A DNA stretch of 64,000 nt, taken from contig NZ_BCNQ01000005.1 in assembly GCF_001515525.1 (NCBI RefSeq), forward strand, positions 1 to 64,000. Reading direction: 5' to 3'. Shown here piece after piece: positions 2,095 to 13,436 of this stretch. The position numbers and the translations under genes are program-made. Numbering within the stretch: position 1 is the first letter of the stretch; each line of letters opens with the position of its first letter. The notes under the pieces were generated by a model, which did no database searches, was not told where the DNA came from, and saw nothing but the letters and a program-made list of their open reading frames with translations. The stretch is from Piscicoccus intestinalis NBRC 104926 (GTDB taxonomy: Bacteria > Actinomycetota > Actinomycetes > Actinomycetales > Dermatophilaceae).

Positions 2095-2450
2095 CGGGGA
2101 CGCTCCCGCGGCAGAACCGCGCTGGCCTGCGCGTCCGGCCCGGTCGGCATCCAGCCACCGAGTCGTCGCGCGGGGGCGCGGACGACGACCGTGACGACGT
2201 CGCGCCCGGAGATCGTGACCGCGGCGTCGGGCGGAGCCAGCCGCCGCGCGACCTGGCGGGTCTCGCGGACGGAGTCGCCCCTCGATGCGGACCGGGCGGC
2301 GGCCCGGGCCGCATCGAGGCAGCGGATCTCGTCGACGACGAAGCCGAGCACCGAGCAGGCCAGGGCGAGAATCAGCGCGACCGCGGGCATGGCCGCCGCG
2401 AACTCTGCGGTCACCATGCCCTGGTCGTCCCGGGCTCGGCGAACGCTCAC
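2091..2450 (-). CDS. TadE family pilus protein
   Basis: The 119-residue product begins VSVRRARDDQGMVTAEFAAA. The G-M-V-T-A-E-F segment followed by a hydrophobic helix (about residues 12-34) is the TadE/pilin-like signature, with the conserved Glu at position +5 of the processed form. The start chosen is GTG at 2450, which overlaps the stop of the upstream pilin gene (GTGA). Longer in-frame starts would read through the pilin gene and are unlikely. TadE pseudopilins are membrane-anchored minor components of Tad/Flp secretion systems. The gene is the middle member of a tightly overlapping trio (DUF4244 pilin, tadE, tadF-like). Confidence 0.8.
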   Translation of the reverse strand: MSVRRARDDQGMVTAEFAAAMPAVALILALACSVLGFVVDEIRCLDAARAAARSASRGDSVRETRQVARRLAPPDAAVTISGRDVVTVVVRAPARRLGGWMPTGPDAQASAVLPRERPR

Positions 2451-2665
2451 TTGATCACGGCCAGCGCGGTCTTGAACAGCGCCTCGATGAGGTGCTTGAC
2501 CATTCCGGACTTGATGACCGCCATGAGAACCGCCGCGAACGCGCAGGCGGCGAGGGTACCGACGGCGTACTCGGCGGTGGTCATGCCCGCCTCGGCCGAG
2601 AGTCGCAGGCGACGCACGAGGGCGGCGGTGGAGGTCCGGGTGCGTCGCACGAGGGTGACAGACAT
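2447..2665 (-). CDS. DUF4244 Flp-type pilin
   Basis: The 72-residue product has a short basic N-terminus, a processing-site-like G-M-T-T-A-E-Y segment (about residues 27-33) and then a hydrophobic helix running almost to the C-terminus. This is the organisation of actinobacterial DUF4244 proteins, the presumed major pilin of tad loci. A ribosome-binding sequence (GAAGGACAC in coding sense) lies just upstream of the ATG at 2665. It is first in the surviving 3' part of the tad locus and overlaps tadE by four bases. Normally tadC would lie directly upstream; here there is ~250 bp of gene-free DNA and then the mobile element. Confidence 0.8.
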   Translation of the reverse strand: MSVTLVRRTRTSTAALVRRLRLSAEAGMTTAEYAVGTLAACAFAAVLMAVIKSGMVKHLIEALFKTALAVIK

Positions 2666-2912
2666 GTCGTGTCCTTCCGAAGGGTTGGTGTGCTTGCGCC
2701 GCCATCGTGCGGTCGTCGTCGATGTCGGCGCGCAGCCCGCGACCGCGGGCTGTGGACGACCGACACCCCCCGAACACGCCTGTGGATAAACGCACGCTGC
2801 GGCCGGACTGGGGGTCGAGTCGAGAGCCCGATGGGGAGCCGGTTGACGACCCCGGCCGAGGGGCCGAGGCCGTCAGCGGGCGGTTGCTCCCGGACCGAAC
2901 AGGAGGACGGAC
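2666..2912. other. Gap between pilin gene and mobile element; probable left junction
   Basis: No gene is recognisable in these 247 bp. The part next to the pilin gene looks native: it carries a TGTGGATAA box at 2781-2789, which recurs upstream of other accessory genes in this window. The part next to 2900 holds the recombinase ribosome-binding site (AGGAGG at 2901). I could not find remnants of tadC, tadB or the missing 3' half of tadA in any frame. The left end of the mobile element must therefore lie between about 2790 and 2900, but no clear direct repeat shared with the right junction near 8750 could be seen. Confidence 0.4.
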
Positions 2913-3620
2913 ATGCGGGCAGTGGGCTACGTGCGGATCAGCAAGGCAGACCGAGGCGCCACCGAGGACCAGCAGCGGCTGAGCTTGCGGCAGCAGGCCG
3001 ACACCATCCGCGCGGCGTGCGAGGCCAAGGGCTGGGAGCTTCTGCGGATCGTTGAGGACTTCGCCCTGTCAGGCAACGACAGCGAGCGTCCCGGCTTCAT
3101 CGAGGTAACCGAGGCGGTGACCAGCGGCGAGGCCGACGTGGTCGTGGTGCGGCACGTGGACCGCCTGTACCGGAAGGGCTGGCGCCTGCTGAAGCTCGTG
3201 GACCCGGTCGCCGAGGGTGGCGACGGGTGGAACGTCTACAGCGTGGAGCAGGCGTTCGACACCACCACGCCCGAGGGCTGGTTCGCCTTCGCCCAGTTCG
3301 CCCTGTTCGGTGACTTCGAGCGGCGTCTCACCGCCAAGCGGACCAAGCTCGCCCTCGCCCAGCTCCGCAAGGAGGGGAAGCACACCGGGCGCAAGAGCCT
3401 CATCCCTGTTGAGGTTGAGGACCGCATCGCCGCGCTGGCTGCCGAGGGCATGAGCGCCAGCGCGATTGCCCGCCTGCTGACCGACGAGCGGGTGCCGCGC
3501 CCGACCACTGGCACCGCCCGGAAGGGCGAGAAGGCCGCTCGCACCACGGTCTTCCACTGGGACCACAGCCACGTGCTCGGCGCGATCCGCCGCGCCGGCG
3601 TGCGCTCTCGCGCCTCCTAG
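2913..3620 (+). CDS. Serine recombinase (resolvase/invertase type)
   Basis: The 235-residue site-specific recombinase has an N-terminal catalytic domain beginning MRAVGYVRIS, with Arg8 and the nucleophile Ser10. It continues with VVVRHVDRLYR and FGDFERRLTAKRTK, which hold the conserved active-site arginines and Asp. A helix-turn-helix follows (about residues 165-215, SASAIARLLTDERVPRP). It is longer than a classical resolvase (~185 aa) but much shorter than large serine integrases (400-700 aa), lacking their zinc-ribbon/coiled-coil region. It starts at ATG 2913 with AGGAGG eight bases upstream. As the first gene at the left edge of the phage-like block, it is the obvious candidate for moving the element, although a C-terminally truncated large integrase cannot be excluded. 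Confidence 0.85.
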   Translation: MRAVGYVRISKADRGATEDQQRLSLRQQADTIRAACEAKGWELLRIVEDFALSGNDSERPGFIEVTEAVTSGEADVVVVRHVDRLYRKGWRLLKLVDPVAEGGDGWNVYSVEQAFDTTTPEGWFAFAQFALFGDFERRLTAKRTKLALAQLRKEGKHTGRKSLIPVEVEDRIAALAAEGMSASAIARLLTDERVPRPTTGTARKGEKAARTTVFHWDHSHVLGAIRRAGVRSRAS

Positions 3621-3880
3621 GTTGCTCGGCTCGGGTCGGGGCTCCATCGTTCGACTCGTTGCCTCGCTTTCGCGAGCACCGCTCGCCCCACCGTCCCCTC
3701 ACTGGCGGTGGGGCGATTGGCGTTTTGGGCGCGTAAGCGTTGCTTGGGCACAAGTCGAAGCGACATGCTTCGACTCGTAGGGCCAGCTGGCCCAGCAGCG
3801 TGGCCCAGGTGGGCGGGAACCGAGGAAGTAGCGAGCAGAGCTCGCGACAACCCATCCGAGACACCCACCTAGGAGCACCA
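3621..3880. promoter_or_regulatory. Intergenic region with three inverted repeats (terminator and operator-like)
   Basis: Between recombinase and capsid gene there are three symmetric elements. First, 10-bp arms at 3684-3693 and 3706-3715 with a 12-nt loop, which suits a terminator after the recombinase. Second, perfect 9-bp arms AGTCGAAGC/GCTTCGACT at 3753-3761 and 3767-3775 around GACAT, which looks like a protein-binding site. Third, a perfect 14-bp palindrome GGGCCAGCTGGCCC at 3780-3793. The capsid gene ribosome-binding site (AGGAG) follows at 3871. A compact switch between recombinase and structural gene expression is possible but is inference. Confidence 0.55.
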
Positions 3881-4969
3881 ATGGCACGCGGCTACAACTC
3901 GATGGCCGACGTCGTGAAGACGACTACGGACGGGCAGGACCTCAACGAGGTCTGGGCCGAGTTCCAGCAGACCATCGCCATCCGCAACCAGCGCCGCAGC
4001 GCGCTGGCGGACCTGTTCACCTTCCGCACCACGCTCGCCACCGAGCTGGTCCCGCAGGCCCTCACCGGCGACGACTTCGACGAGGCCAGCGAGTACGGCG
4101 TCCCGACCGGCATCCGGCCCACCGCCGACACCGTCAAGGTCGGCTACCCGCACAAGTGGTACGACAAGGCCACGCGCTTCACCTGGCAGTTCCTCTCCCG
4201 CGCCAGCTCGGCGCAGGTCGCGAGCGTGCACGCGTCCGCGCTGGAGGCCGACAACAAGCTCATCTTCGACAAGGTCATGCGGCGGGTGTTCAACCCGACC
4301 ACGTGGCAGAACGAGGACGGCACGTCGGTCTACGGCTTCTGGAACGGCGTGGACGGCCAGCCGCCCGCCAACCAGTGGGGTGAGACCTTCGCGGCCAACT
4401 ACACCCACTACCGGACCTCCGGCGCGGCCAACCTCACCAGCGCCGACGTGGACGAGCTGGTCGGTGCGGTCGAGTCGCAGGGCTTCGGGCTGCGCGAGAA
4501 CGGCGACCGGATCATCGTCCTCGTCAACCCCGAGCAGGCGGACGTCATCGCGAGCTTCACCCGCGCCGGCGGCGCGAAGCACGACGCGATCCCCTCCACG
4601 GACGCGCCCGCGTTCATCACCGCCGAGACCATCGAGGGCGCCCGTCCTCCGGGCGAGTTCAACGGGCTCACGGTCAAGGTCGCCTACGGCGACGCGTGGG
4701 TGGTCGAGGACCGTGGCATCCCGGCTGGCTACATGGTCGCGCTGGCGACCGGTGGCCCGAACAGCGAGCGCAACCCGCTGGGCTTCCGCGAGGAGGCCGT
4801 GCCGAGCCTTCAGGGCTTGATCCAGGTCGGTGGCGGCAGCGCCGACTACCCGCTCATCAACTCGTACTACCTGCGCGGCTTCGGCGTGGGCACGCGGCGC
4901 CGTGGCGCGGGCGCGGTCATGCAGATCACCGCGAACGCGGTCTACGCCACGCCGGCGAAGTACGCCTGA
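3881..4969 (+). CDS. Phage major capsid protein
   Basis: The 362-residue protein starts at ATG 3881 with AGGAG ten bases upstream. Its sequence has the character of actinophage HK97-fold/encapsulin-like major capsid proteins: a helical N-terminus (residues ~1-60), an extended central region rich in Asn/Trp/Tyr (KWYDKATRFTWQFLSRA), then an A-domain-like segment with RIIVLVNPEQADVIASF and a glycine-rich C-terminal beta region. No prohead protease, portal, large terminase or tail gene accompanies it, so it is a lone structural gene on a small element, as in phiRv1-like islands or capsid-carrying satellites. The assignment rests on recognition of the overall pattern; a profile search against phage capsid families would settle it. 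Confidence 0.7.
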   Translation: MARGYNSMADVVKTTTDGQDLNEVWAEFQQTIAIRNQRRSALADLFTFRTTLATELVPQALTGDDFDEASEYGVPTGIRPTADTVKVGYPHKWYDKATRFTWQFLSRASSAQVASVHASALEADNKLIFDKVMRRVFNPTTWQNEDGTSVYGFWNGVDGQPPANQWGETFAANYTHYRTSGAANLTSADVDELVGAVESQGFGLRENGDRIIVLVNPEQADVIASFTRAGGAKHDAIPSTDAPAFITAETIEGARPPGEFNGLTVKVAYGDAWVVEDRGIPAGYMVALATGGPNSERNPLGFREEAVPSLQGLIQVGGGSADYPLINSYYLRGFGVGTRRRGAGAVMQITANAVYATPAKYA

Positions 4970-5051
4970 TGAACCCCGGTCCGGCGAGGGTTGCTGCCCT
5001 TCTCTCGCCGGACCGGTCAAGGGCAGCAAGGGCAGGCTCAGGAGGTCAACC

Positions 5052-5447
5052 ATGACCAGCAACAACCTCACGACTGACACGATCCTCGGCGCCGTGGAGA
5101 CCGGCGCGATCCTGTGGCCGCACAACGAGCAGGCCACCGAGGACATCGGCGTCGAGATGGCCGTTCTCGCGGCTCTCGACAAGCCGACCGACGCGCCGAC
5201 CGGCAAGGCTCTGCACCGGCGGGCCGGCGCCCACTTCTCGCAGGTTCGCCCGCTGCTCGTTGGGCTCAACCGCACCAACTGGACGCTGCGCGACGTGGAC
5301 GAGGCGCCGTGCGACCGGTGCGACCGCGACGTGTCGTGCCGCCACACCCTCCGCGTCCCGGCAGGCGCCACGGTGGTGGAGCTTCACGTCTGCGAGCGAT
5401 GCCGCGACCAGCTGGACGGCTCCTTCCGCGCTCTGGTGTGGAGCTGA
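5052..5447 (+). CDS. Small zinc-ribbon phage-type protein
   Basis: The 131-residue protein starts at ATG 5052 behind AGGAGGTC. The first ~80 residues are helical without recognisable motifs. The C-terminal third carries CDRCDRDVSC...HVCERCRDQL, two CxxC pairs plus a cysteine and histidine, suggesting a zinc ribbon. It lies between the capsid gene and the small-terminase-like gene, and its stop is only two bases from the next start, so the three genes probably form one transcript. A DNA- or protein-binding role in packaging or regulation is inference; I do not recognise the family. Confidence 0.6.
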   Translation: MTSNNLTTDTILGAVETGAILWPHNEQATEDIGVEMAVLAALDKPTDAPTGKALHRRAGAHFSQVRPLLVGLNRTNWTLRDVDEAPCDRCDRDVSCRHTLRVPAGATVVELHVCERCRDQLDGSFRALVWS

Positions 5448-5449
5448 TC

Positions 5450-6079
5450 GTGGCGCGACGCAAGAGCCACGGAGACGAGTGGTACGCGGCCCACCCGGAG
5501 GTCGTGCGATGCAAGGAGCTGTTGAAGACGACCGGCCAGCAGTGCGCGATGGAGGCCCATCCCGGCGCAACGGTCTGCTTCAAGCACGGCGCGAACCTCC
5601 CGCAGGTGCAGGCGGCTGCCGCCCGGCGGATTCAGGGATCGGTCGAGGATGCCGTCAAGCGGCTACAGGCCATGCTGGACGACCCGAGCGTGGAGAACCG
5701 CGAGAAGGTGAAGATCCTCCACGACTTGCTGGACCGTGGCGGGCTCGGTGCGACGAACAAGCTCCTCGTCGGCGTGGCCGAGCTGGACCCGGTCGAGACT
5801 CTGTTCCGCGACCTACTCGGCACGCCGGGCGCGCTGGCGCTGCCCTCCACGGGCGAGGTCTCCGACGCCGAGCTTGCCAAGCGGCGCGCGGCTTGGGCCG
5901 AGCTCGTCGGCGGTGATGACGGCGACGTTGTTGACGCCGAGCTGGTCGAGGAGCCCGCCGAGGACAGGGCGCCCGACGCGATCGAGGCCCGCAACGTCGA
6001 CCGTCCGCAGGCGTCCGCCAAGATGCCCAAGCGCGTCGCGGCGGACCTTGCGGCGCTCCAGAAGGCGGACCTGTGGTGA
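5450..6079 (+). CDS. Small-terminase-like / zinc-finger phage protein
   Basis: The 209-residue protein has its likely start at GTG 5450, two bases after the preceding stop; GTG 5438 is an overlapping alternative. The N-terminus carries a cysteine/histidine finger (RCKELLKTTGQQC...TVCFKHGANLPQV), followed by a helical segment AAARRIQGSVEDAVKRLQ and a repeat-like KVKILHDLLDRGGLG. The C..C..C..HG..PQV pattern followed by helices is common in phage proteins encoded near small terminase subunits. The C-terminal ~70 residues are acidic and probably disordered. It could recognise DNA for packaging, which would suit an element that borrows a helper phage's large terminase; that role is inference. Confidence 0.55.
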   Translation: MARRKSHGDEWYAAHPEVVRCKELLKTTGQQCAMEAHPGATVCFKHGANLPQVQAAAARRIQGSVEDAVKRLQAMLDDPSVENREKVKILHDLLDRGGLGATNKLLVGVAELDPVETLFRDLLGTPGALALPSTGEVSDAELAKRRAAWAELVGGDDGDVVDAELVEEPAEDRAPDAIEARNVDRPQASAKMPKRVAADLAALQKADLW

Positions 6080-6294
6080 GCCGGCGCCGTCGCCGCACAT
6101 AGAGCTCCCGCGCCCGGCGTTGGACTGGTTCGAGTTCCCTTCTCGCCGGGCGCGGGCCTATAGCACAGGCGCGCCGTCTCGAGTCTTGAGACGCCCATAG
6201 CGCGTTGTCGGACCCACCTGCGAAAGTTGCTCTTGGCCGGCCTGTCGTCGTTGAGACGGGTCGTTTTTGGCTCAAGATGAGGGAGGGTTGCCAG
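6080..6294. terminator. Hairpin after the capsid block and leader of the methyltransferase gene
   Basis: A perfect inverted repeat (13-bp arms CCCGCGCCCGGCG/CGCCGGGCGCGGG at 6107-6119 and 6144-6156, 24-nt loop) follows the phage-type gene block and probably ends its transcript. A second small dyad, CGTCTC...GAGACG (6175-6180 and 6188-6193), lies upstream of the methyltransferase gene and could be its operator. GGGAGGG at 6281-6287 sits seven bases before the GTG chosen as the methyltransferase start. Confidence 0.5.
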
Positions 6295-7875
6295 GTGACG
6301 GAGGTCCGCGTGTCGGAGGCGATGCTCCTCATGGAGCGGAAGGCGTACGGCGCCTTCTATACGCCGAAGGACGCAGCCCACTACATGGCCTCGTGGGCAA
6401 TGCGCACCGAGGGTGACGTCCTATTGGAACCCAGCATCGGCGACGGCTCCTTCATCGCCGCCGCGCGCGACGTGGCGGCAGCTCGTCGGTGGCAACAGCC
6501 GCGCTTCATCGCCGCCGAGCTGAACCCGCGCACGGCTGCTGAGGCTGTGACATGCGGGTTGGTCGCCCCGGACGAGCTCGCCGTTGGCGACTTTCTACGA
6601 GCGCCCATCCGTCCGGTGCAAGCCGCGATCGGAAACCCGCCGTACGTTCGCCTTCGGGCGCTCCCAGCAGAGCAGGCCGAGACCGCTCTCCGGGCGTCGG
6701 GCGCCGACCTTGGCGCGCCGATGTTGACGAGTGGCAGCGTGTGGATGCCGTTCGTTTCCCGCACGGCGCGCTTCCTCGGGCCGGACGGTCGCATGGCCCT
6801 GGTGCTGCCGTGGGACATGACGTACGTGAAGTACGCCCGTCCGCTGTGGCGCTACCTCGCGGACACGTTCGGCGCCCTCCGCGTGGTACGGGTGCGCGAG
6901 CGCCTGTTCCCGGAGATCGGCCAAGACGTGCTCCTGCTGTTCGCGGACGGCAAGGGGCGCACCACCGACACGGTCGCGTTCGAGGCTCACAGCACCGTCG
7001 AGGACCTGATCGCGGGCACACCCGAGACGACGTCCGCCGTAGCGATCAACCGGATCGTCGCCGGCGACCGCGCCTTCCAAGAGGCGCTGCTGCCCTCAGG
7101 CGTCGCTGAGCTACTGGCGTCCACCCGCTCATGGACCGTGCCTGCGCGCGAGCTGGTTACGTTCAACATCGGCTACGTCACCGGCGACAAGCACTTCTTC
7201 CACCCTGGGCCGGAGCACGACCTCCCCGAAACGAGCTTGCGCCCTGCGCTCACCAACGCGCGCGGCATGCGCGGTAGGGGCCTCTACACATCTCGGCTGG
7301 ACGAGTCGGCCACCGCCACGCTGTGGCTGCCCGGCGACGAGCTTACGGAGGCCGAGGAGGCATACGAGCGGCGCGGGAGACGGCTGGGCGTGCACAAGGC
7401 GTACAAGTGCCGCGTGCGCGATCCGTGGTACCGGGTACCCGGCGTGAAGGTCCCCGACTTGGTGCTGTCGGTGTTCTCGTCGCTGCCGGTCCTGATGGTC
7501 AATGACGGCGAGTACGTCGCGACGAACAGCCTGCTGTGCGGCTACCTCCAGCAGGGCGACGCGGACTCCTTCGCCGCGAGTTGGTACACGTCGCTCACGC
7601 TGCTGAACGCCGAGCTGGAAGTCCACTCGCTCGGAGGAGGCGTGCTGGTCCTCGTGCCCAACGAGGCTGGCAACGTGCGAGTGCCCAAGCCGAGGACCGT
7701 CCCGAAGAAGCTCCTGCCCACAGTGGCCAAGGCTCTCCGCGCTGGAGACCTCCGAGGGGCGTACGCGGCAGGCGACGAGGCACTGGCGCGGAAGTACGGC
7801 GCCGACGCGGTCGAGCTGCTGCGTGAGGGCATCGCCGTGCTCGAAGCGTGGCGGGTGGCGAAGCCGCTCAGCTGA
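6295..7875 (+). CDS. N6-adenine DNA methyltransferase of a restriction-modification system
   Basis: The 526-residue protein carries GAFYTPKDAAHYMASW (SAM-pocket entry), EPSIGDGSFI (motif I) and the catalytic motif IV NPPYVRLRAL at about residues 110-120. This order is typical of gamma-class N6-adenine methyltransferases of the Eco57I/TaqI kind. The C-terminal half would hold the target recognition region. GTG 6295 was chosen because GGGAGGG stands seven bases upstream and the protein begins just before the conserved GAFYTP motif; in-frame starts at 6205 and 6277 are alternatives. The gene converges on, and overlaps by eight bases, a putative restriction endonuclease, giving a self-contained modification/restriction pair carried as cargo on the phage-derived element. 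Confidence 0.85.
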   Translation: MTEVRVSEAMLLMERKAYGAFYTPKDAAHYMASWAMRTEGDVLLEPSIGDGSFIAAARDVAAARRWQQPRFIAAELNPRTAAEAVTCGLVAPDELAVGDFLRAPIRPVQAAIGNPPYVRLRALPAEQAETALRASGADLGAPMLTSGSVWMPFVSRTARFLGPDGRMALVLPWDMTYVKYARPLWRYLADTFGALRVVRVRERLFPEIGQDVLLLFADGKGRTTDTVAFEAHSTVEDLIAGTPETTSAVAINRIVAGDRAFQEALLPSGVAELLASTRSWTVPARELVTFNIGYVTGDKHFFHPGPEHDLPETSLRPALTNARGMRGRGLYTSRLDESATATLWLPGDELTEAEEAYERRGRRLGVHKAYKCRVRDPWYRVPGVKVPDLVLSVFSSLPVLMVNDGEYVATNSLLCGYLQQGDADSFAASWYTSLTLLNAELEVHSLGGGVLVLVPNEAGNVRVPKPRTVPKKLLPTVAKALRAGDLRGAYAAGDEALARKYGADAVELLREGIAVLEAWRVAKPLS

Positions 7876-8662
7876 AGTAGTCGAGCCAGATGTTGCGCTT
7901 CTTGAACGTCTCCACGAGCCGGTCAACGAACGTGCTGATCTGCATGTCCCGCTCATCGAGGGGGACGGCGCCTTGCACGAGGCCGTCCTTGATCTCCGGC
8001 AGCGGTGTCGTGTCGAAGTCGACCACCATGTAGGCGAACTGGTCGTAGATGCCTCGGATGTCCTTGTACTGCGTGCCATCGCGACCGGCGATCGCGCTGT
8101 ACATCCGGGCGTAGCGCGGGTGGTCGGGGTGCTCGTCGACGATGACCTTCTGACCCTTCCGCTTGGCCGACTTCTTGCTGAGGACCGGGTGCAGGTACAC
8201 GTAGCCGTAGACCGCCATAGGGAAGCGATCCTGGAGGCTGATGCACTCGCCGATGATCCCTTGGTAGTACTCCAGCACGTTCTGCCCGACCGAGCTCATC
8301 TGGCTCCGTACGCCGATGCTCATCAGCACGCCGTTGTCGGGGTGGATGACTGCAACGTCGGCGTCCTTCGGCTTGTGTGAACCGAAGAGCTTCGCCTCCT
8401 CCTTGACCTCCACGCCCTGCTTCCGAGCCTCGTCGGTGAGGCGCCCGCGCAAGTCGTCCGCGATGTAGCGGTGGAGCATCTTGATGAAGCCCTGACTGCG
8501 TACGGCGCCGATCGGGTCAGCGTCGTACTTCGCCTTCATGTCGCGAAGGACGTCCTCCAGGGTAGGAGCGCTGATCGGTGCTGCCGCGACGGCTGTCGGC
8601 GTGGACTCGGTGGCCTCGGCCACGTCTCCATCCTCGAACTCCAACTGGTCATCGTCAGTCAC
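7868..8662 (-). CDS. Putative type II restriction endonuclease (PD-(D/E)XK-like)
   Basis: The 264-residue protein is encoded tail-to-tail with the methyltransferase (8-bp overlap). After an acidic, flexible ~35-residue N-terminus there is a segment KPKDADVAVIHP, then VLMSIGVRSQMSSVGQN and the helix YYQGIIGECISLQDRFP. An Asp followed ~15 residues later by a V-x-R on a beta strand, with Gln and Ser-Ser-x-x-x-N downstream, resembles a variant nuclease core of the kind found in restriction enzymes that aim at one cognate methyltransferase. The start is GTG 8662 with no ribosome-binding sequence, so the message may be leaderless. An 11-bp inverted repeat (8667-8697) lies five bases upstream. The assignment rests largely on context. 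Confidence 0.6.
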   Translation of the reverse strand: MTDDDQLEFEDGDVAEATESTPTAVAAAPISAPTLEDVLRDMKAKYDADPIGAVRSQGFIKMLHRYIADDLRGRLTDEARKQGVEVKEEAKLFGSHKPKDADVAVIHPDNGVLMSIGVRSQMSSVGQNVLEYYQGIIGECISLQDRFPMAVYGYVYLHPVLSKKSAKRKGQKVIVDEHPDHPRYARMYSAIAGRDGTQYKDIRGIYDQFAYMVVDFDTTPLPEIKDGLVQGAVPLDERDMQISTFVDRLVETFKKRNIWLDYFS

Positions 8663-8666
8663 TGTG

Positions 8667-8697
8667 GGACCGTATCGAGCCTGCGCCGATACGGTCC
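8667..8697. promoter_or_regulatory. Inverted-repeat operator upstream of the restriction gene
   Basis: Perfect 11-bp arms GGACCGTATCG and CGATACGGTCC (8667-8677 and 8687-8697) flank a 9-nt spacer, ending five bases before the GTG of the endonuclease gene. This position, overlapping the expected promoter or 5' end of the message, fits a repressor site that delays restriction until modification is complete. Binding by the methyltransferase or by a host factor is inference. Confidence 0.5.
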
Positions 8698-8716
8698 ACC
8701 GAACGCCGCAACCGTC

Positions 8717-9307
8717 TCACAACAGCATTACCTGTTCCACTCGCGGCGACGTTCCACCCGAGATGACGAAGGAGTGCCGGCCGCGAACGATCGCGTCGAG
8801 CACCGGCATCCAGTCGGGCGGCATCGATCCGCTGCGCTGAAGGTGTTCCAGGGTGCTGATGCGTCGCCGCGGAACCCGCAGGCTGATGTGGGCGGCGCCG
8901 TCGACGAGCGGCGGCAGCATCGCGTGCAGCCGCACACCGGACGGCAGGAGTCCGTCGACGAACGGGCTCGCCTCGTCGAGGCGCCGCCTGGCCAGACCCG
9001 CCAGCCGCACCGCGAGCCGGCGAACCGCCTGGGCGTCTCCCAGGTCGCAGGCGACCGGCTCGAGACCCGCGCCGCGGTCGACCCACACGCCGTCGGTGCC
9101 GTTGACGAGCACGTCGGTGACCGCCTCGTCGAGCAGCAGCGGCTCCAACGGACCGGCCCCGAGCACCGCGTCGCCGAGTTCGGTGGTGGCGTCCTCGACT
9201 CCCCCGCGGCCCAGCGTCAGGGCGGATCGGGCCACGACGTCGTCGACGCGTCGAGGAGTGGGCGCGTGCCCTGCCCGGATGTGCTCCCACAGCACGGATT
9301 GGTTCAT
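8717..9307 (-). pseudogene. tadA: tadA (CpaF-family ATPase), truncated at Walker A by the mobile element
   Basis: The 196-residue reading frame matches the N-terminal domain of secretion ATPases of the TadA/CpaF family: LGAGPLEPLLLDEAVTDVLV, VRRLAVRLAGLARRRLDEAS, PFVDGLLPSGVRLHAMLPP and HISLRVPRRRI. It stops where the nucleotide-binding loop should begin. The protein reads FVISGGT and then continues with ten unrelated residues to a stop, instead of GSGKTTLL. The junction is at about 8750/8751. Walker A, Asp box, Walker B and the whole catalytic domain are absent, so the product cannot be an active ATPase. Its ATG overlaps the cpaE stop (ATGA). The rest of tadA, tadB and tadC are not found on the far side of the insertion. 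Confidence 0.85.
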
Positions 9308-10026
9308 GCTGCCCTCCCCAGCGGCACCCGGATCGACTCGAGGACCTGGTCGGCGGCCTCGGCGAGCGCGCCTCGACCGCCCGGCACCCGTCCCCGTCTG
9401 AGATCCGCGGTGACTCGGTCGTCGTCGGACAGCACGGCGACCACCCGCAGCCCGAGGGCATCACACACAAGTGCCGGCAGATCCTCCGGGGAACCACGAG
9501 CCACCCGCTGCACGATGGACCAGGCGACGCCGCTCGCCTCGAGCGCCCTGGCGTGGACTCCGGCAGCCGCCAGCTGGGTCGGCCCGAAACCGCACACGAT
9601 GAGCCCCTCGTGCAGCAGGGCGGCAGCCACCCCGAACTCCGGCGCTGACAGCTCCGGCAGGTCGACGACGATGAGGTCGCAGTAGAAGGCCAGGTTGTCG
9701 ATCACCGCCCGGATCGCGTGAGCATCGGGCGCGGCGGCGGACGTGCGCTCGAAGGAGACCGCGGGCACCCCGGCTCCGCGCGGCAGCCTCGGCAGGATGT
9801 CTGGGATGTCGAGGCGTCCACGCGCTCGAGCCAGATCGGGCCAGCGCAGCCCCGGCTCGTGATCGACCCCCAAGACCACGTCGAGTCCACCGCCGTGCCT
9901 TCGCAGATCGACGAGCGCGCAGACGGCGCCCCGTTGCCGGGCGCGCACCCCCAGTGCGGCCACGAGGCAGGAGGCACCAACGCCACCCGAGGCGCCGCTC
10001 ACGCCGATGATCCGAGCTCGAGTCAT
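9304..10026 (-). CDS. CpaE-like MinD/ParA-family septum-site/pilus protein
   Basis: The 240-residue P-loop protein of the helicase/secretion-neighbourhood CpaE family begins MTRARIIGVSGASGGVGASC; GASGGVGAS is a deviant Walker A lacking the usual final lysine. LVDLRRHGGGLD and DLIVVDLPEL form the following strands. ATG 10026 was chosen because it sits directly before the P-loop strand; earlier in-frame starts would add unconserved sequence and run into a promoter-like region. CpaE-like proteins position tad pilus machinery. It is coupled to the broken tadA by a four-base overlap. A TGTGGATAA box lies at 10080-10088, 54 bp upstream. Confidence 0.8.
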   Translation of the reverse strand: MTRARIIGVSGASGGVGASCLVAALGVRARQRGAVCALVDLRRHGGGLDVVLGVDHEPGLRWPDLARARGRLDIPDILPRLPRGAGVPAVSFERTSAAAPDAHAIRAVIDNLAFYCDLIVVDLPELSAPEFGVAAALLHEGLIVCGFGPTQLAAAGVHARALEASGVAWSIVQRVARGSPEDLPALVCDALGLRVVAVLSDDDRVTADLRRGRVPGGRGALAEAADQVLESIRVPLGRAA

Positions 10027-10167
10027 GAGGTCACGGTGCGGCACCGACACGGCCGGAGGCGAGGGGGCAGAGCGCGACCTGTGGATAAACACCACCCCGT
10101 CCGCGCGCCTGTGGATGATTTCGGCACGAGCGGTTCGCTCCTGGCTCGAAAAAGGGGCAGACATACG

Positions 10168-10201
10168 GGTGGCCCCCGCTGGGGGGACAGCGGGGGCCAC
10201 C
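10168..10201. terminator. Strong hairpin (13-bp arms)
   Basis: Perfect arms GGTGGCCCCCGCT and AGCGGGGGCCACC flank an 8-nt loop. It lies upstream of cpaE and could end transcripts arriving from either direction. There is no long U-tract, as is common in very GC-rich actinobacteria. Confidence 0.5.
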
Positions 10202-10730
10202 AACGCGCCAAGCCCCGGGGGGGAGGAGCTGGTGCGCCGCGCTCAACCCGTAGGGAGCGCTGACATCATTGTGTAGGTCGGACGCCCGATAAGCAAACGG
10301 CTGTGATGGCATCCGGCGACCAGGATACGCAACGCCTTTTCGGCGCCTCACGGACGTCTGGACCAGTCGGTGAGAAACCGCTGATCTGCGACTTTGTGAA
10401 CTTCCAACGCGACGACTGACGACCAGTCGACTTCACATCTGCAGCGCTGTGACACACAGTTTGCGCAAAACTAGCGGAGCATGGTGTAACGCTTTGAGGT
10501 GACCGCACGATGTGCACCGAATGGCGCTGCTGTGCAGCGAGGCGGGCCCAGACCCACCGCTGGCAAGCCGCCGAGGACTCTGGTCGCCCTGACTCGATTC
10601 CGGCCTCATGGCCCAGCTGGCTCTGGTGGCGCGCACGGCGCCGACGGCCCAGTCGGTCAGGACGACCGAGGGCATTACCTCGACCGACCAGGTGGCGCCA
10701 CCGCAAGCGTCGGCAGCCGTGACGCAGAGC

Positions 10731-10757
10731 GAGGGCACCTCGTTGCGAGGTGCCCTC
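10731..10757. terminator. Strong hairpin (12-bp arms, 3-nt loop)
   Basis: Perfect arms GAGGGCACCTCG and CGAGGTGCCCTC flank TTG. A hairpin this tight is terminator-like, yet no protein gene ends next to it, so it may terminate an unrecognised transcript in the 10.2-10.7 kb stretch. Confidence 0.5.
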
Positions 10758-11237
10758 GGGTCGTGGACTCCACCGGTTACCAAGCGTGCAATCTGAGCCG
10801 TCCGGGGGCACCTGGCCCCGCGGACCTGTCCATCAGTGGACCGACCGCGAGTGGGTGCCGGTATCGTTCACGACCGGCGGCGGCTAACCGCCGTCCTTGC
10901 TCATGATTATGCTCCCGACCTGGGGCTTTGGGAAGCGGAAGCAAGAAATCCATCGCTCGGAGTCGGTCCGGCCGCGTGTCCCGCCGGTCGATGCGGGGCG
11001 GGGCGCCCCTTGCCACAAACCACCCACACTGGTGTGTGAATCATCCCGTGAGAGCAGAACCGCTCACCAGGCGGACATTCCGGAGTGTGACCAAGAACGC
11101 CTTCGGAGTGATTCGGTTGGAGGCTCAGTGGACTCGTGGCAGCCTCCGAGGAGCTGTGGATAACGCGCGTCACGAGTCGGTGCACCTGAGTAACGTGACG
11201 CGTTGCCACGCTCCACCTGCCCCTCCAGGAGCTCTTC

Positions 11238-13436
11238 GTGCCCACTGACGCCACCCGCCGGCCCCACCATCGAGCCCTGCCCGGCCACCGGTCGAAAACT
11301 CCCGCCCGGGTGCTCGGTGCCGCGATCTTCATGGCGCTGTCGGCCGTTCCGGCCGCGGCCTATGCGGCCGACGGTGCGGAGACCGATCTCCCGGATGAGG
11401 CCGTCGTCGATGCCCCCGCGCAGTCGACCCATGAGACGGGCGAGTCGGGCGCCTCGGCGAAGCCCGAAACCCAGGCCCCGGAGGAGCACGCGCCCGAGAC
11501 CGAGCGGGCGGCCAAGTCCGAACACGCAGCCGAGGCCGGGCAGGCATCCGATCACGCAGCCGAGGTCGAGCAGGCAGCCGAACCCGAGCACGAGCCGGAG
11601 CGCGCAGCCGAATCCGAGCAGACAGCCGAACCCGAGCCCGAGCGGACAGCCGAGCCCGAGCAGGCGCGCGAGGCCGAGCACGTAGCCGACGAGGCCTCCG
11701 AAGCAGACCACGAGCGCGAGCAGAAACCCGACACACCGACCGAGGCGCGACCCGAGCATCAGAGCGACTCCCAGCCGGAAGACCAGCACGCACCCGAGCC
11801 CGAGCACGCAGCCGACAAGGCGCCCGAACTCGCCGAGACAGACCACGAGCACGAGCAGAAGCCCGACGCACCGACCGAGACGCGACCCGAACAGCAGAGC
11901 GACTCCCAGCCGGAAGACCAGCACGCACCCGAGCCCGAACACGCGCCCGAATCCGCCGAGGCGGCTGGTGACGAACCCGAGTCCGATGCCCGGCCGGAGG
12001 CTGAGGCCGGGAGTCGTTCTGAGTCTTCACCTCAGGCTCCGGAACAGCCCTGGGCAGAATCGACGCCCTCGGCGGGCGGTGACGACCAGCCCGCGCGGTC
12101 CGTCACCCACCACGAGACTGCGACCGACGCCGGCTCCGCCAGCGACTCACGCGCCGAGTCAACTGAGCCGGGAGTGTCTGCCGAGGGCGCCGACAGCGAT
12201 CACCGCTCTGAGGCAGGCACACCGTACGACCGCGACAGCCACGGCGATGTCGCTCCACGCGAGTACCCTCAGGACGAGCCGCACCTGACGACGAACTCGC
12301 CCGAGGGTGATTCGAATGTGGCTCTTGCACAAAACGCTTGGTCTCCGCTGGCGGCGCCGGGCAAGGGCATCGACGACCTTCGCCCTGCGACGGATCTGTC
12401 CGGCGAGGGGTCGTGGAAGCGTGTCGCGGAATCAGGGGCTGACGTCGCGGACGGACGCGGAGCCGAGTCCTCTGAACGGCAGTCGTGGGACGCATCGGGC
12501 GAAGATCGTCGCGATGCCGGCCCCATCGTCGTCCGGCCCGCGGAACTGGCCGAGGCGCAGGCGGCGCGACCTGGCGAGAACGCCGCCGCGACCGTCGGCC
12601 CCGTGCGCGGAGCGGGCTCGCCACCCGCTCAAGATGTCGACGAGCTGCGATTCGGTGGGGCCGGCACGCGTTGGGTGGAAGTGGACGCTGACGTGATCGG
12701 TCCCGCGGCCGGCGCGGCTGATGCTCTTGTCGGCCAGGCCACGAAGGCCCTCGGCGGCACGCCCGTCCTCACCGACCTCCCACCCGGCCAGGCGAAGAAG
12801 CTCGAACGCGACGCCGAAAGCGCGACCTGCCACCCGGTCAGGCGAAGAAGCTCGACCGCACCGCCGACCCCAAGCTCGACCTCCTCCTCCCACCTGGCCA
12901 AGCGAAGAAGTTCGACCGCACCTCCGAAACCGGGTCCGACCTGCCGCCCGGCCAAGCGAAGAAGGCCGACCGCGCCGACGAAGCCGACGAAACTGTGCGC
13001 GACCTGCCGCCGGGTCAGGCGAAGAAGCTGGACCGCACCTCCGACCACGAGCCCGACCTGCCACCCGGTCAGGCGAAGAAGCTCGACCGTACCTCCGACC
13101 ACGAGCCCGACCTGCCACCCGGTCAGGCGAAGAAGCTCGTCCGCAGCACGACGCGCGCAACCGAGGAGCGCGCGGAGCCCGCCACGCAGAAGTACCGCTC
13201 GCCGGTCGAGACCGCGGTCGAGGCTCAGGTCAGCGCGGCCAGGGACGCGGTCGACCGGCTCAGCGCTCCCAGCCGGCAGGAGTCGGCACCGGCGCCGTCC
13301 TCGGCACCGGCGCCGTCGTCGGCGCCATCGTCCACGGCACGCACGAGACCGTCCACGCCCAACGAGACCCGCGCACCTGAGCAGACGCCGACCCGCGCAC
13401 CTGAGCCGACGCCGTCGACCACCCGAGACGAGGTGA
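11238..13436 (+). CDS. Secreted acidic repeat protein, N-terminal part (frameshifted at ~12.81 kb)
   Basis: The frame starts at GTG 11238 behind AGGAG (11226). An N-terminal signal peptide (ARVLGAAIFMALSAVPAAAYA, cleaved near residue 42) is followed by ~300 residues dominated by Glu, Pro, Ala and Gln. These include a 45-residue repeat present twice (DNA copies about 11704-11811 and 11839-11946). A lower-complexity region leads into the first LPPGQAKK repeat at 12774. At 12807-12823 the true frame is lost: the residues that follow are the next repeats read in the wrong frame up to a stop at 13436. Adding one C there (AGCGCGAC to AGCCGCGAC) restores SRDLPPGQAKK and joins this part to the downstream frame, giving one protein of ~1157 residues. 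Likely an extracellular stalk or surface protein. Confidence 0.65.
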   Translation: MPTDATRRPHHRALPGHRSKTPARVLGAAIFMALSAVPAAAYAADGAETDLPDEAVVDAPAQSTHETGESGASAKPETQAPEEHAPETERAAKSEHAAEAGQASDHAAEVEQAAEPEHEPERAAESEQTAEPEPERTAEPEQAREAEHVADEASEADHEREQKPDTPTEARPEHQSDSQPEDQHAPEPEHAADKAPELAETDHEHEQKPDAPTETRPEQQSDSQPEDQHAPEPEHAPESAEAAGDEPESDARPEAEAGSRSESSPQAPEQPWAESTPSAGGDDQPARSVTHHETATDAGSASDSRAESTEPGVSAEGADSDHRSEAGTPYDRDSHGDVAPREYPQDEPHLTTNSPEGDSNVALAQNAWSPLAAPGKGIDDLRPATDLSGEGSWKRVAESGADVADGRGAESSERQSWDASGEDRRDAGPIVVRPAELAEAQAARPGENAAATVGPVRGAGSPPAQDVDELRFGGAGTRWVEVDADVIGPAAGAADALVGQATKALGGTPVLTDLPPGQAKKLERDAESATCHPVRRRSSTAPPTPSSTSSSHLAKRRSSTAPPKPGPTCRPAKRRRPTAPTKPTKLCATCRRVRRRSWTAPPTTSPTCHPVRRRSSTVPPTTSPTCHPVRRRSSSAARRAQPRSARSPPRRSTARRSRPRSRLRSARPGTRSTGSALPAGRSRHRRRPRHRRRRRRHRPRHARDRPRPTRPAHLSRRRPAHLSRRRRPPETR
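12774..13143 (+). repeat. Seven LPPGQAKK repeats in the secreted protein gene
   Basis: Seven copies of a D-L-P-P-G-Q-A-K-K-(L/F/A)-x-R unit are encoded in tandem with spacers of variable length. The first is in one reading frame (12774) and the other six in the frame shifted by one base (from 12824). Short LPPG-x-AKK motifs occur in various exported bacterial proteins. The last copies are nearly identical at DNA level, which favours slippage and recombination. Confidence 0.8.

What the first reader, a model, noticed from the sequence alone, without database searches (positions are those of the whole stretch)
2790..8750. Six-kilobase phage-derived element: recombinase + lone capsid gene + restriction-modification cargo
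Seen: a serine recombinase, a major-capsid-like protein, a zinc-ribbon protein, a small-terminase-like protein, then a convergent methyltransferase/endonuclease pair, all between two broken ends of a tad locus. No portal, large terminase, protease, tail or lysis gene is present. Known comparators: phiRv1/phiRv2 of M. tuberculosis (small, recombinase plus capsid genes) and capsid-carrying phage satellites in other phyla. Inference: a minimal satellite-like or domesticated element that supplies its own capsid and specific packaging subunit, borrows the rest from a helper phage, and carries host-protective restriction-modification. The combination with so few structural genes is unusual.
Basis: partly seen in the sequence, partly recalled or inferred. 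Interest (0 to 1): 0.8.

Follow-up and report, generated by a model that had tools for sequence, protein, structure and literature searches.

The report
Truncated lone-capsid phage satellite in tadA
This stretch of an actinobacterial chromosome is a damaged copy of a small phage parasite that carries one shell gene, a DNA-packaging adaptor and a small recombinase; relatives in other actinobacteria likewise lack most other particle genes, so they probably borrow those from infecting phages.

Summary
The genes are as described. The capsid matches solved phage capsids (E 1e-63); the TerS family matches solved small terminases (E 2e-9). Of 31 loci with this capsid in named bacterial genomes (26 near-full, 5 fragments), none has a detectable large terminase, portal, protease or scaffold gene; the 80 viral contigs tested all have two or more other structural genes. 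One branch of the capsid tree separates 28 satellite from 58 phage capsids (support 94, unrooted). Of 21 near-full loci not used as seeds, 21 have the TerS and 20 the small recombinase. So this is an actinobacterial lone-capsid satellite family, not prophage decay. But the window copy is no complete six-gene element: relatives inserted in tadA carry a large serine integrase (6 of 7; the seventh is cut by its contig) and mostly replication genes. Here these are missing together with the 3' half of tadA, tadB and tadC, so the left part appears deleted and the copy is probably immobile alone. Integrase-plus-capsid islands were already proposed in Mycobacterium, and SaPIbov5 Ccm is a characterised satellite capsid homologue: a new variant of a known kind. 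Helper, particles and packaging are untested.

The parts
2447..2665 (-). DUF4244 tad-locus gene (host), first intact host gene left of the element
   Evidence: PF14029 1e-20; a similar gene lies after tadA and two tadB/tadC-like genes in same-genus genome G001 (L032, by eye)
2666..2899 (.). Deletion junction zone: in relatives the large serine integrase, replication genes and, on the host side, tadA 3' half, tadB and tadC would lie here
   Evidence: no useful alignment to L015 or L032; no tadA 3' half and no PF00482 match found in the own genome
2913..3620 (+). Small serine recombinase (235 aa), conserved core gene of the satellite family
   Evidence: Resolvase 6.7e-29; 69% aa identity to L015; HMM found a match in 27 of 28 near-full loci
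3881..4969 (+). HK97-type major capsid protein (362 aa)
   Evidence: phrog_3990 1e-90; 8giu 1.1e-63
5052..5447 (+). Zn-ribbon protein, function unknown
   Evidence: C87, C90, C114, C117 invariant in the 15 rows; model pLDDT 84.5, no fold match at E 0.001; HMM found it in 17 of 28 near-full loci
5450..6079 (+). Small terminase subunit (TerS) with N-terminal zinc motif
   Evidence: PHROG TerS families; PDB small terminases 6w7t, 7joq; HMM found it in 28 of 28 near-full loci
6295..7875 (+). Type II N6-adenine methyltransferase (cargo); ORF opens at 6205, GTG at 6295 is a likelier start
   Evidence: PDLC03267 2.8e-67; M_Eco57I_C 1.8e-9
7868..8662 (-). Type II restriction-endonuclease-like protein (cargo)
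   Evidence: PDLC03558 3e-13 over residues 114-218; no match in solved structures
8748..8761 (-). Attachment junction in the Walker A codons of tadA
   Evidence: same codons interrupted in L007 and L015, L054 and L037; homology to tadA of G001 ends at 8750
8717..9307 (-). tadA 5' half, truncated host ATPase gene
   Evidence: TIGR03819 1.3e-53 over profile positions 11-187 of 340

Best explanation
The window holds the right-hand part of a member of an actinobacterial lone-capsid satellite family. Shown by sequence: relatives integrate into tadA (Walker A codons, or a second site upstream) with a large serine integrase, or elsewhere; most carry primase-polymerase and/or AAA helicase genes; they carry a small serine recombinase, a capsid protein, often a Zn-ribbon protein, a small terminase and variable cargo; no large terminase, portal, protease or scaffold gene was detected in them. 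Inferred: when a siphophage with a related capsid infects, the satellite excises and replicates, its capsid protein assembles (alone or mixed with the helper's) on the helper's scaffold and portal and is matured by the helper's protease, making a shell suited to about 11 kb, and its TerS directs the helper's large terminase to satellite DNA; helper tails finish the particle. The small serine recombinase may resolve multimers. The restriction-modification pair protects the host against other phages. The window copy has lost its integrase and replication genes with the neighbouring tad genes, so it probably cannot move alone, though its capsid, TerS and restriction-modification genes are still open.
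For: TerL, portal, protease, MuF and scaffold: 0 of 31 genome loci each; the same test finds two or more other structural genes in 80 of 80 viral contigs (TerL in 46, portal in 50, protease in 68). HMM sample of 394 class genomes: 9 with a match including the own; of 7 loci fetched, 6 near-full, each with capsid + TerS + small recombinase and no other structural gene detected. Of 21 non-seed near-full loci, TerS in 21 and small recombinase in 20. Capsid tree: one branch separates 28 satellite from 58 phage capsids (SH-aLRT 94; shuffled mean 24 changes, 0 of 500 as low). Capsid dN/dS at most 0.21 in five of six related pairs. Same tadA cut in L007, L015, L054, L037. Missing tadA-3'/tadB/tadC. 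Seven of ten cargo proteins of relatives match defence models. Relatives of the TerS lie within about 550 bases of a record end in 9 of 10 phage records found. Precedent for a satellite capsid homologue: Ccm of SaPIbov5 (PMC8569155, abstract and passages).
Against: No helper, excision, replication or particle has been shown. No satellite of this family was confirmed in IMG/VR with the TerS query; the 80 capsid contigs are all phage-like, and the new contigs were not classified. IMG/VR favours contigs with several viral genes (recalled), so the contrast with genome loci is partly built in. Ten of the 31 genome loci are cut by a contig end on one side (L057 with 0.1 kb left of the capsid). Three of 31 carry one further structural gene (L048 minor tail, L051 tape-measure piece, L054 minor capsid). 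One related capsid pair has dN/dS 0.56 (L046/L047) and the distant pair window/L036 has 0.62, so selection on the window's own capsid is not shown; the ORFs were taken stop to stop. The tree has no outgroup. The deletion could in principle be an assembly error; reads were not available.
Confidence: 0.8

Rival explanations
1. Remnant of an ordinary prophage that lost most of its structural genes.
For: The window copy is truncated on the left, and a second copy in the same genome (contig C141) has a capsid gene broken by a stop or frameshift, with transposase-like genes nearby (the latter by eye).
Against: Relatives in many genera have the same core and lack the same genes; satellite and phage capsids separate by one branch; no locus with this capsid plus TerL or portal was found in the bacterial genomes examined.
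Confidence: 0.08
2. Domesticated anti-phage island: the capsid acts as a dominant-negative shell protein that spoils incoming phages of the same capsid family, without transfer of the island. (Overlaps with the best explanation for the window copy, which may be immobile.)
For: Capsid under purifying selection in five of six related pairs; defence cargo; no integrase or replication gene found in the window copy.
Against: A small terminase is conserved with the capsid (28 of 28), which points to packaging; relatives keep integrase and mostly replication genes and use several sites.
Confidence: 0.15
3. The six genes are a complete minimal element moved by the small serine recombinase.
For: The small recombinase is the only recombinase of the element and is conserved.
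Against: It co-occurs with a large serine integrase in six of seven tadA relatives (the seventh, L053, is cut by its contig) and with tyrosine integrases in nine other loci; the window lacks tadA-3', tadB and tadC, as after a deletion.
Confidence: 0.07

Closest known systems
Candidate PICIs of Mycobacterium, including phiRv1/phiRv2 (PMC10654092; section 9 read, other passages seen)
   Same: Chromosomal islands defined there as integrase plus major capsid gene; tyrosine integrases at tRNA genes or serine integrases elsewhere; some with helicase and terminase genes; induction by phages not demonstrated.
   Different: That survey is of Mycobacterium, with highly diverse capsids, and some islands carry scaffold genes. 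Here one capsid group, with a nearly constant trio (small serine recombinase, capsid, TerS), runs across many actinobacterial genera, and tadA is a repeated site. Whether my Mycobacterium loci are among that paper's islands was not checked.
SaPIbov5 Ccm, cos-type SaPI (PMC8569155; abstract and passages seen)
   Same: A satellite encodes a homologue of the helper's capsid protein and uses the rest of the helper's particle.
   Different: Different phylum and capsid; Ccm occupies the pentamers and has an N-terminal delta (scaffold-like) domain, while six of the seven annotated phages with the present capsid have a gene annotated as scaffold.
Capsid-forming PICIs (definition as given in PMC10690885, passages seen)
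   Same: The satellite makes its own capsid protein and TerS.
   Different: cf-PICIs also encode portal, protease, head-tail connectors and large terminase. Portal, protease, large terminase, stopper and tail-terminator homologues were tested and not found here.
MulchRoom/MiniFlayer satellites of Streptomyces (PMC10690885, passages seen)
   Same: Actinobacterial satellites with their own capsid gene.
   Different: They have large terminase, portal and scaffold genes and no recognisable primase; a primase or helicase gene was detected in 21 of 28 near-full loci here.
PICMIs (PMC10803314, title and start of abstract seen in a search listing)
   Same: Small chromosomal satellites of phages.
   Different: PICMIs encode no genes for capsid remodelling.

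Membership tests
Phage satellite (broad sense) | Integrated element with integration and replication genes, lacking a full particle set | tested here: met
   met by most relatives; in the window copy no integrase or replication gene was found
Phage satellite (broad sense) | Mobilisation by a helper phage | not testable with these tools
   needs infection experiments
Mycobacterium-type candidate PICI (PMC10654092) | Integration machinery plus major capsid gene in one region | tested here: met
   relatives; window: only a small serine recombinase remains
PICI (broad) | Own small terminase | tested here: met
PICI (broad) | Stl- or AlpA-like master regulator | not tested
   short HTH-like ORFs seen by eye in several relatives
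Capsid-forming PICI | Portal, protease, large terminase with the capsid | tested here: not met
   0 of 31 genome loci and none in the window
Ccm-type capsid redirection | Satellite capsid homologue incorporated into helper-derived shells | not testable with these tools
   capsid homology shown; incorporation needs mass spectrometry or cryo-EM
Ordinary prophage remnant | Capsid grouped with those of complete phages, or integrated prophages with the same capsid | tested here: not met
   tree
phiRv1/phiRv2 | Homologous capsid and large serine integrase | not tested
   phiRv sequences were not compared
Type II restriction-modification | Adenine methyltransferase plus endonuclease pair | tested here: met
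   PADLOC matches for both; activity and catalytic residues not tested

The most novel reading that the evidence does not exclude
An old, widespread actinobacterial satellite lineage in which a single satellite-specific capsid protein replaces or reshapes the shell of virulent siphophages with related capsids, while scaffold, portal, protease and large terminase come from the helper; and in which a small serine recombinase, kept beside a separate integrase, has a dedicated role in the packaging cycle, such as cutting replication products to unit length.
Probability: 0.35. Interest if true: 0.75.

Novelty: new variant of a known kind. Interest (0 to 1): 0.58.

Why it matters
It turns a single odd locus into a family with a sharp rule: in the bacterial genomes examined this capsid occurs in lone-capsid islands or fragments, while in phages it comes with a structural module. 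That makes it possible to test how little of a particle a satellite must encode, whether one capsid protein is enough to redirect assembly on a helper's scaffold, and what a conserved small recombinase does beside an integrase. The named phages carrying the related capsid (for example Microbacterium, Gordonia and Arthrobacter phages) offer helper candidates. The family also repeatedly disrupts tadA, a pilus ATPase gene, and carries antiphage cargo.

Tried and rejected
Capsid search with the single protein P0002 confirmed nothing in genome contigs or viral contigs; the seven-row alignment worked. No plasmid record holds the capsid. The Zn-ribbon protein has no convincing relative by PHROG, BFVD or PDB fold; it is not the gene that follows the capsid in the phages, whose seven products as printed are rich in acidic residues and lack its Cys pairs (by eye). 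Fold search of the TerS model gave mostly unnamed or uncharacterised phage proteins first and named small terminases only at E 0.08 and above; the model's pTM was 0.42, so the TerS call rests on profiles. I looked for the satellites in IMG/VR with a TerS alignment (220 stretches matched a pattern, none confirmed) and with satellite-only capsid alignments; the new loci from those two (L154-L164) were not classified. The left junction zone matches nothing usefully. The idea that the small recombinase alone is the integrase was dropped after the large serine integrases were found in relatives. Rows dropped: capsid fragments L062-L066 from the tree; 87 phage capsids thinned to 58 by identity and k-mer similarity. 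Only the best 80 of 323 confirmed viral contigs were kept by the tool. In the reference set for I labelled three unannotated or loosely annotated genes by position or product: Suzy gp10 as scaffold, Suzy gp4 (hydrolase) and Mopey gp13 as protease. The ten cargo proteins were picked by eye. The small-recombinase HMM also recognises the resolvase domain of large integrases; I counted the best-scoring HMM per ORF, and its weakest counted scores are 84-102 bits (L037, L038, L039, L054).
Full report
The window encodes, in order, a 235-aa serine recombinase, a 362-aa capsid protein, a Zn-ribbon protein, a TerS-like protein, an adenine methyltransferase and, convergent to it, an endonuclease-like protein. 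The capsid matches PHROG 3990 'major head protein' at 1e-90 and two solved capsids at 1e-63 and 3e-60. The TerS-like protein alone is a weak match, but of 27 family members 16 match one and 12 another small-terminase PHROG, and their profile matches two solved small terminases at 1.7e-9 and 5.1e-9. In phages its relatives lie within about 550 bases of a record end in 9 of the 10 records found, where terminase genes often lie (the last point recalled). The methyltransferase and endonuclease match PADLOC type II models. GC content is 0.63-0.71 in the 500-base windows of the element; it is 0.73-0.78 in those left of 2500 and 0.72-0.74 at 8751-10250, but also 0.63-0.69 at 10001-11500, so composition alone does not mark the borders.

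The right border is an insertion into tadA. The gene is cut in the Walker A codons at 8750. A same-genus genome, G001, has tadA uninterrupted across these codons, followed by genes that look like tadB, tadC and DUF4244 (names by eye). Two relatives from other genomes, L007 and L015, are cut at the same codons, with the other half of tadA on the far side; so are L054 and L037. Three others, L036, L053 and L058, are cut further upstream in tadA; for L053 only one side is on the contig. In one Nocardioides MAG contig (L036/L037) a single tadA appears split by two satellites, one at each site. In L015 the element lies in the opposite orientation to tadA compared with L007 and the window, which is unexplained.

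The left border shows that the window copy is incomplete. Of seven tadA relatives (L007/L060, L015, L036, L037, L053, L054, L058), six carry a large serine integrase at one end and the seventh (L053) is cut by its contig; a primase- or helicase-type gene was detected in five (Pfam Resolvase plus Recombinase domains for L007 and L015). In the window the sequence jumps from just upstream of DUF4244 (2665) to the small recombinase (homology to L015 starts at 2900). The own genome has no match to the tadB/tadC family PF00482 (13 of 14 control genomes match), and the only match to the tadA family PF00437 is a weak one inside a gene that looks like ClpB. That second search did not report the window's own tadA half either, so its sensitivity is limited. 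The genome is 97.8% complete in 336 contigs. A deletion that removed integrase, replication genes, tadA-3', tadB and tadC is the simplest reading; an assembly error cannot be excluded.

The family. A seven-row capsid alignment found 31 loci in named genomes, 26 near-full and 5 fragments (L062-L066): Nocardioides, Demequina, Arthrobacter, Hoyosella, Terrabacter, Microbacterium, Agromyces, Mycobacterium, Micromonospora, Rathayibacter, Quadrisphaera and others. Ten of the 31 are cut by a contig end on one side. Proteins of seven annotated phages that carry this capsid family were compared, at E 1e-4, with these loci and with the best 80 of 323 viral contigs. None of the 31 genome loci has TerL, portal, protease, MuF or scaffold homologues; three have one other structural gene each (L048, L051, L054). 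All 80 viral contigs have two or more, which shows that the test works; but IMG/VR favours contigs with several viral genes (recalled), so the contrast is partly built in. HMMs from eight seed loci find the small recombinase in 27 and TerS in 28 of 28 near-full loci (window, L015 and L036-L061); without the seven that were seeds or copies of seeds, 20 and 21 of 21. The Zn-ribbon gene was detected in 17 of 28, a primase-polymerase or helicase gene in 21 of 28 (in L037 the hit belongs to the neighbouring element), a tyrosine integrase in 9 of 28. Some elements without tyrosine integrase lie beside a comM/yifB-like gene (L014/L043, L038, L045; recognised by eye); L038 has a large serine integrase at the far end (Pfam), and L042 and L048 show part of one at the locus end (by eye).

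A check that does not depend on sequence patterns: an HMM search of 394 genomes of the class found 9 with a match, including the window's own and G315, already known. Of the seven others, fetched, six are near-full and all six have capsid, TerS and small recombinase and no other structural gene detected; one of these, L177, is probably the same locus as L053 (equal contig length). The seventh, L183, is a capsid fragment. A search of 396 genomes of the phylum gave 4 with a match, the own genome included, of which one was new, a fragment. Earlier, with the single protein, 3 of 186 family genomes and 6 of 396 order genomes matched, the own genome included; one of the latter, G211, holds only a capsid fragment, with a candidate defence gene nearby.

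Capsid tree: 28 satellite and 58 phage capsids, labelled by source, are separated by one branch (SH-aLRT 94; shuffled labels need 24 changes on average, 0 of 500 as few). The tree has no outgroup, so either side could be the older. dN/dS of the capsid in six related pairs was 0.04, 0.08, 0.13, 0.19, 0.21 and 0.56; in the distant pair window/L036 it was 0.62 (ORFs taken stop to stop). So most related copies are under purifying selection, while for the window copy this is not shown beyond its open frame. Together these results disfavour prophage decay as the origin of the family.

Cargo. Of ten cargo proteins picked by eye from relatives, seven matched PADLOC models: a second type II restriction-modification pair in L014, a TIR-domain-type protein and a PDC-S35-like protein in L036, an AriA/GajA-like ATPase in L042, PDC-S21 in L018 and PDC-M34A in L053; three (L015, L048, L058) matched nothing. 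The restriction-modification pair of the window was not found in the other loci searched.

How it may work. The annotated phages with this capsid have, around the capsid gene, a scaffold (annotated in six of seven) and in most a protease or MuF-type gene. A satellite with only capsid and TerS must obtain the rest from a helper. The closest characterised precedent is Ccm of SaPIbov5, a capsid homologue that redirects helper assembly (PMC8569155, abstract and passages). No step from excision to particle formation has been shown for this family. The phages with this capsid are the natural helper candidates; that they are virulent is suggested by the absence of integrated copies in these searches, not tested.

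Place among known systems. Integrase-plus-capsid islands were described as candidate PICIs in Mycobacterium, including phiRv1 and phiRv2 (PMC10654092, section 9). cf-PICIs and the Streptomyces satellites carry more particle genes (PMC10690885, passages). The listings of nine literature searches showed no description of this family across actinobacterial genera; none of them asked for tadA as an integration site, and the library holds only part of the literature. I therefore rate it a new variant of a known kind, with the window itself a truncated copy.

Noticed in passing
L008 (own genome contig C141), 3142-11139: A second, degraded satellite in the same genome: capsid split by a stop or frameshift, Zn-ribbon, TerS, HTH-like genes, transposase-like genes and a primase-polymerase-like gene.
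   Followed up: partly
L036/L037 (Nocardioides MAG contig JAOPXC010000399.1): Two satellites in one contig appear to split a single tadA gene at two different sites, each with its own large serine integrase.
   Followed up: partly
L015 3650-15006 versus L007 2824-13856: Elements at the same tadA codons lie in opposite orientations, unusual for a serine integrase unless the crossover core is symmetric.
   Followed up: no
L018 7285-10091: A remnant with only the start of the capsid gene and a match to the end of the small recombinase, next to a PDC-S21 candidate defence gene.
   Followed up: partly
L054 11127; L048 11838; L051 12890: Single extra structural genes (minor capsid, minor tail, a tape-measure piece) near the satellite capsid.
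   Followed up: no
window 11238-13436: Long ORF rich in Glu, Ala and Pro right of the tad locus; strong AT skew.
   Followed up: no
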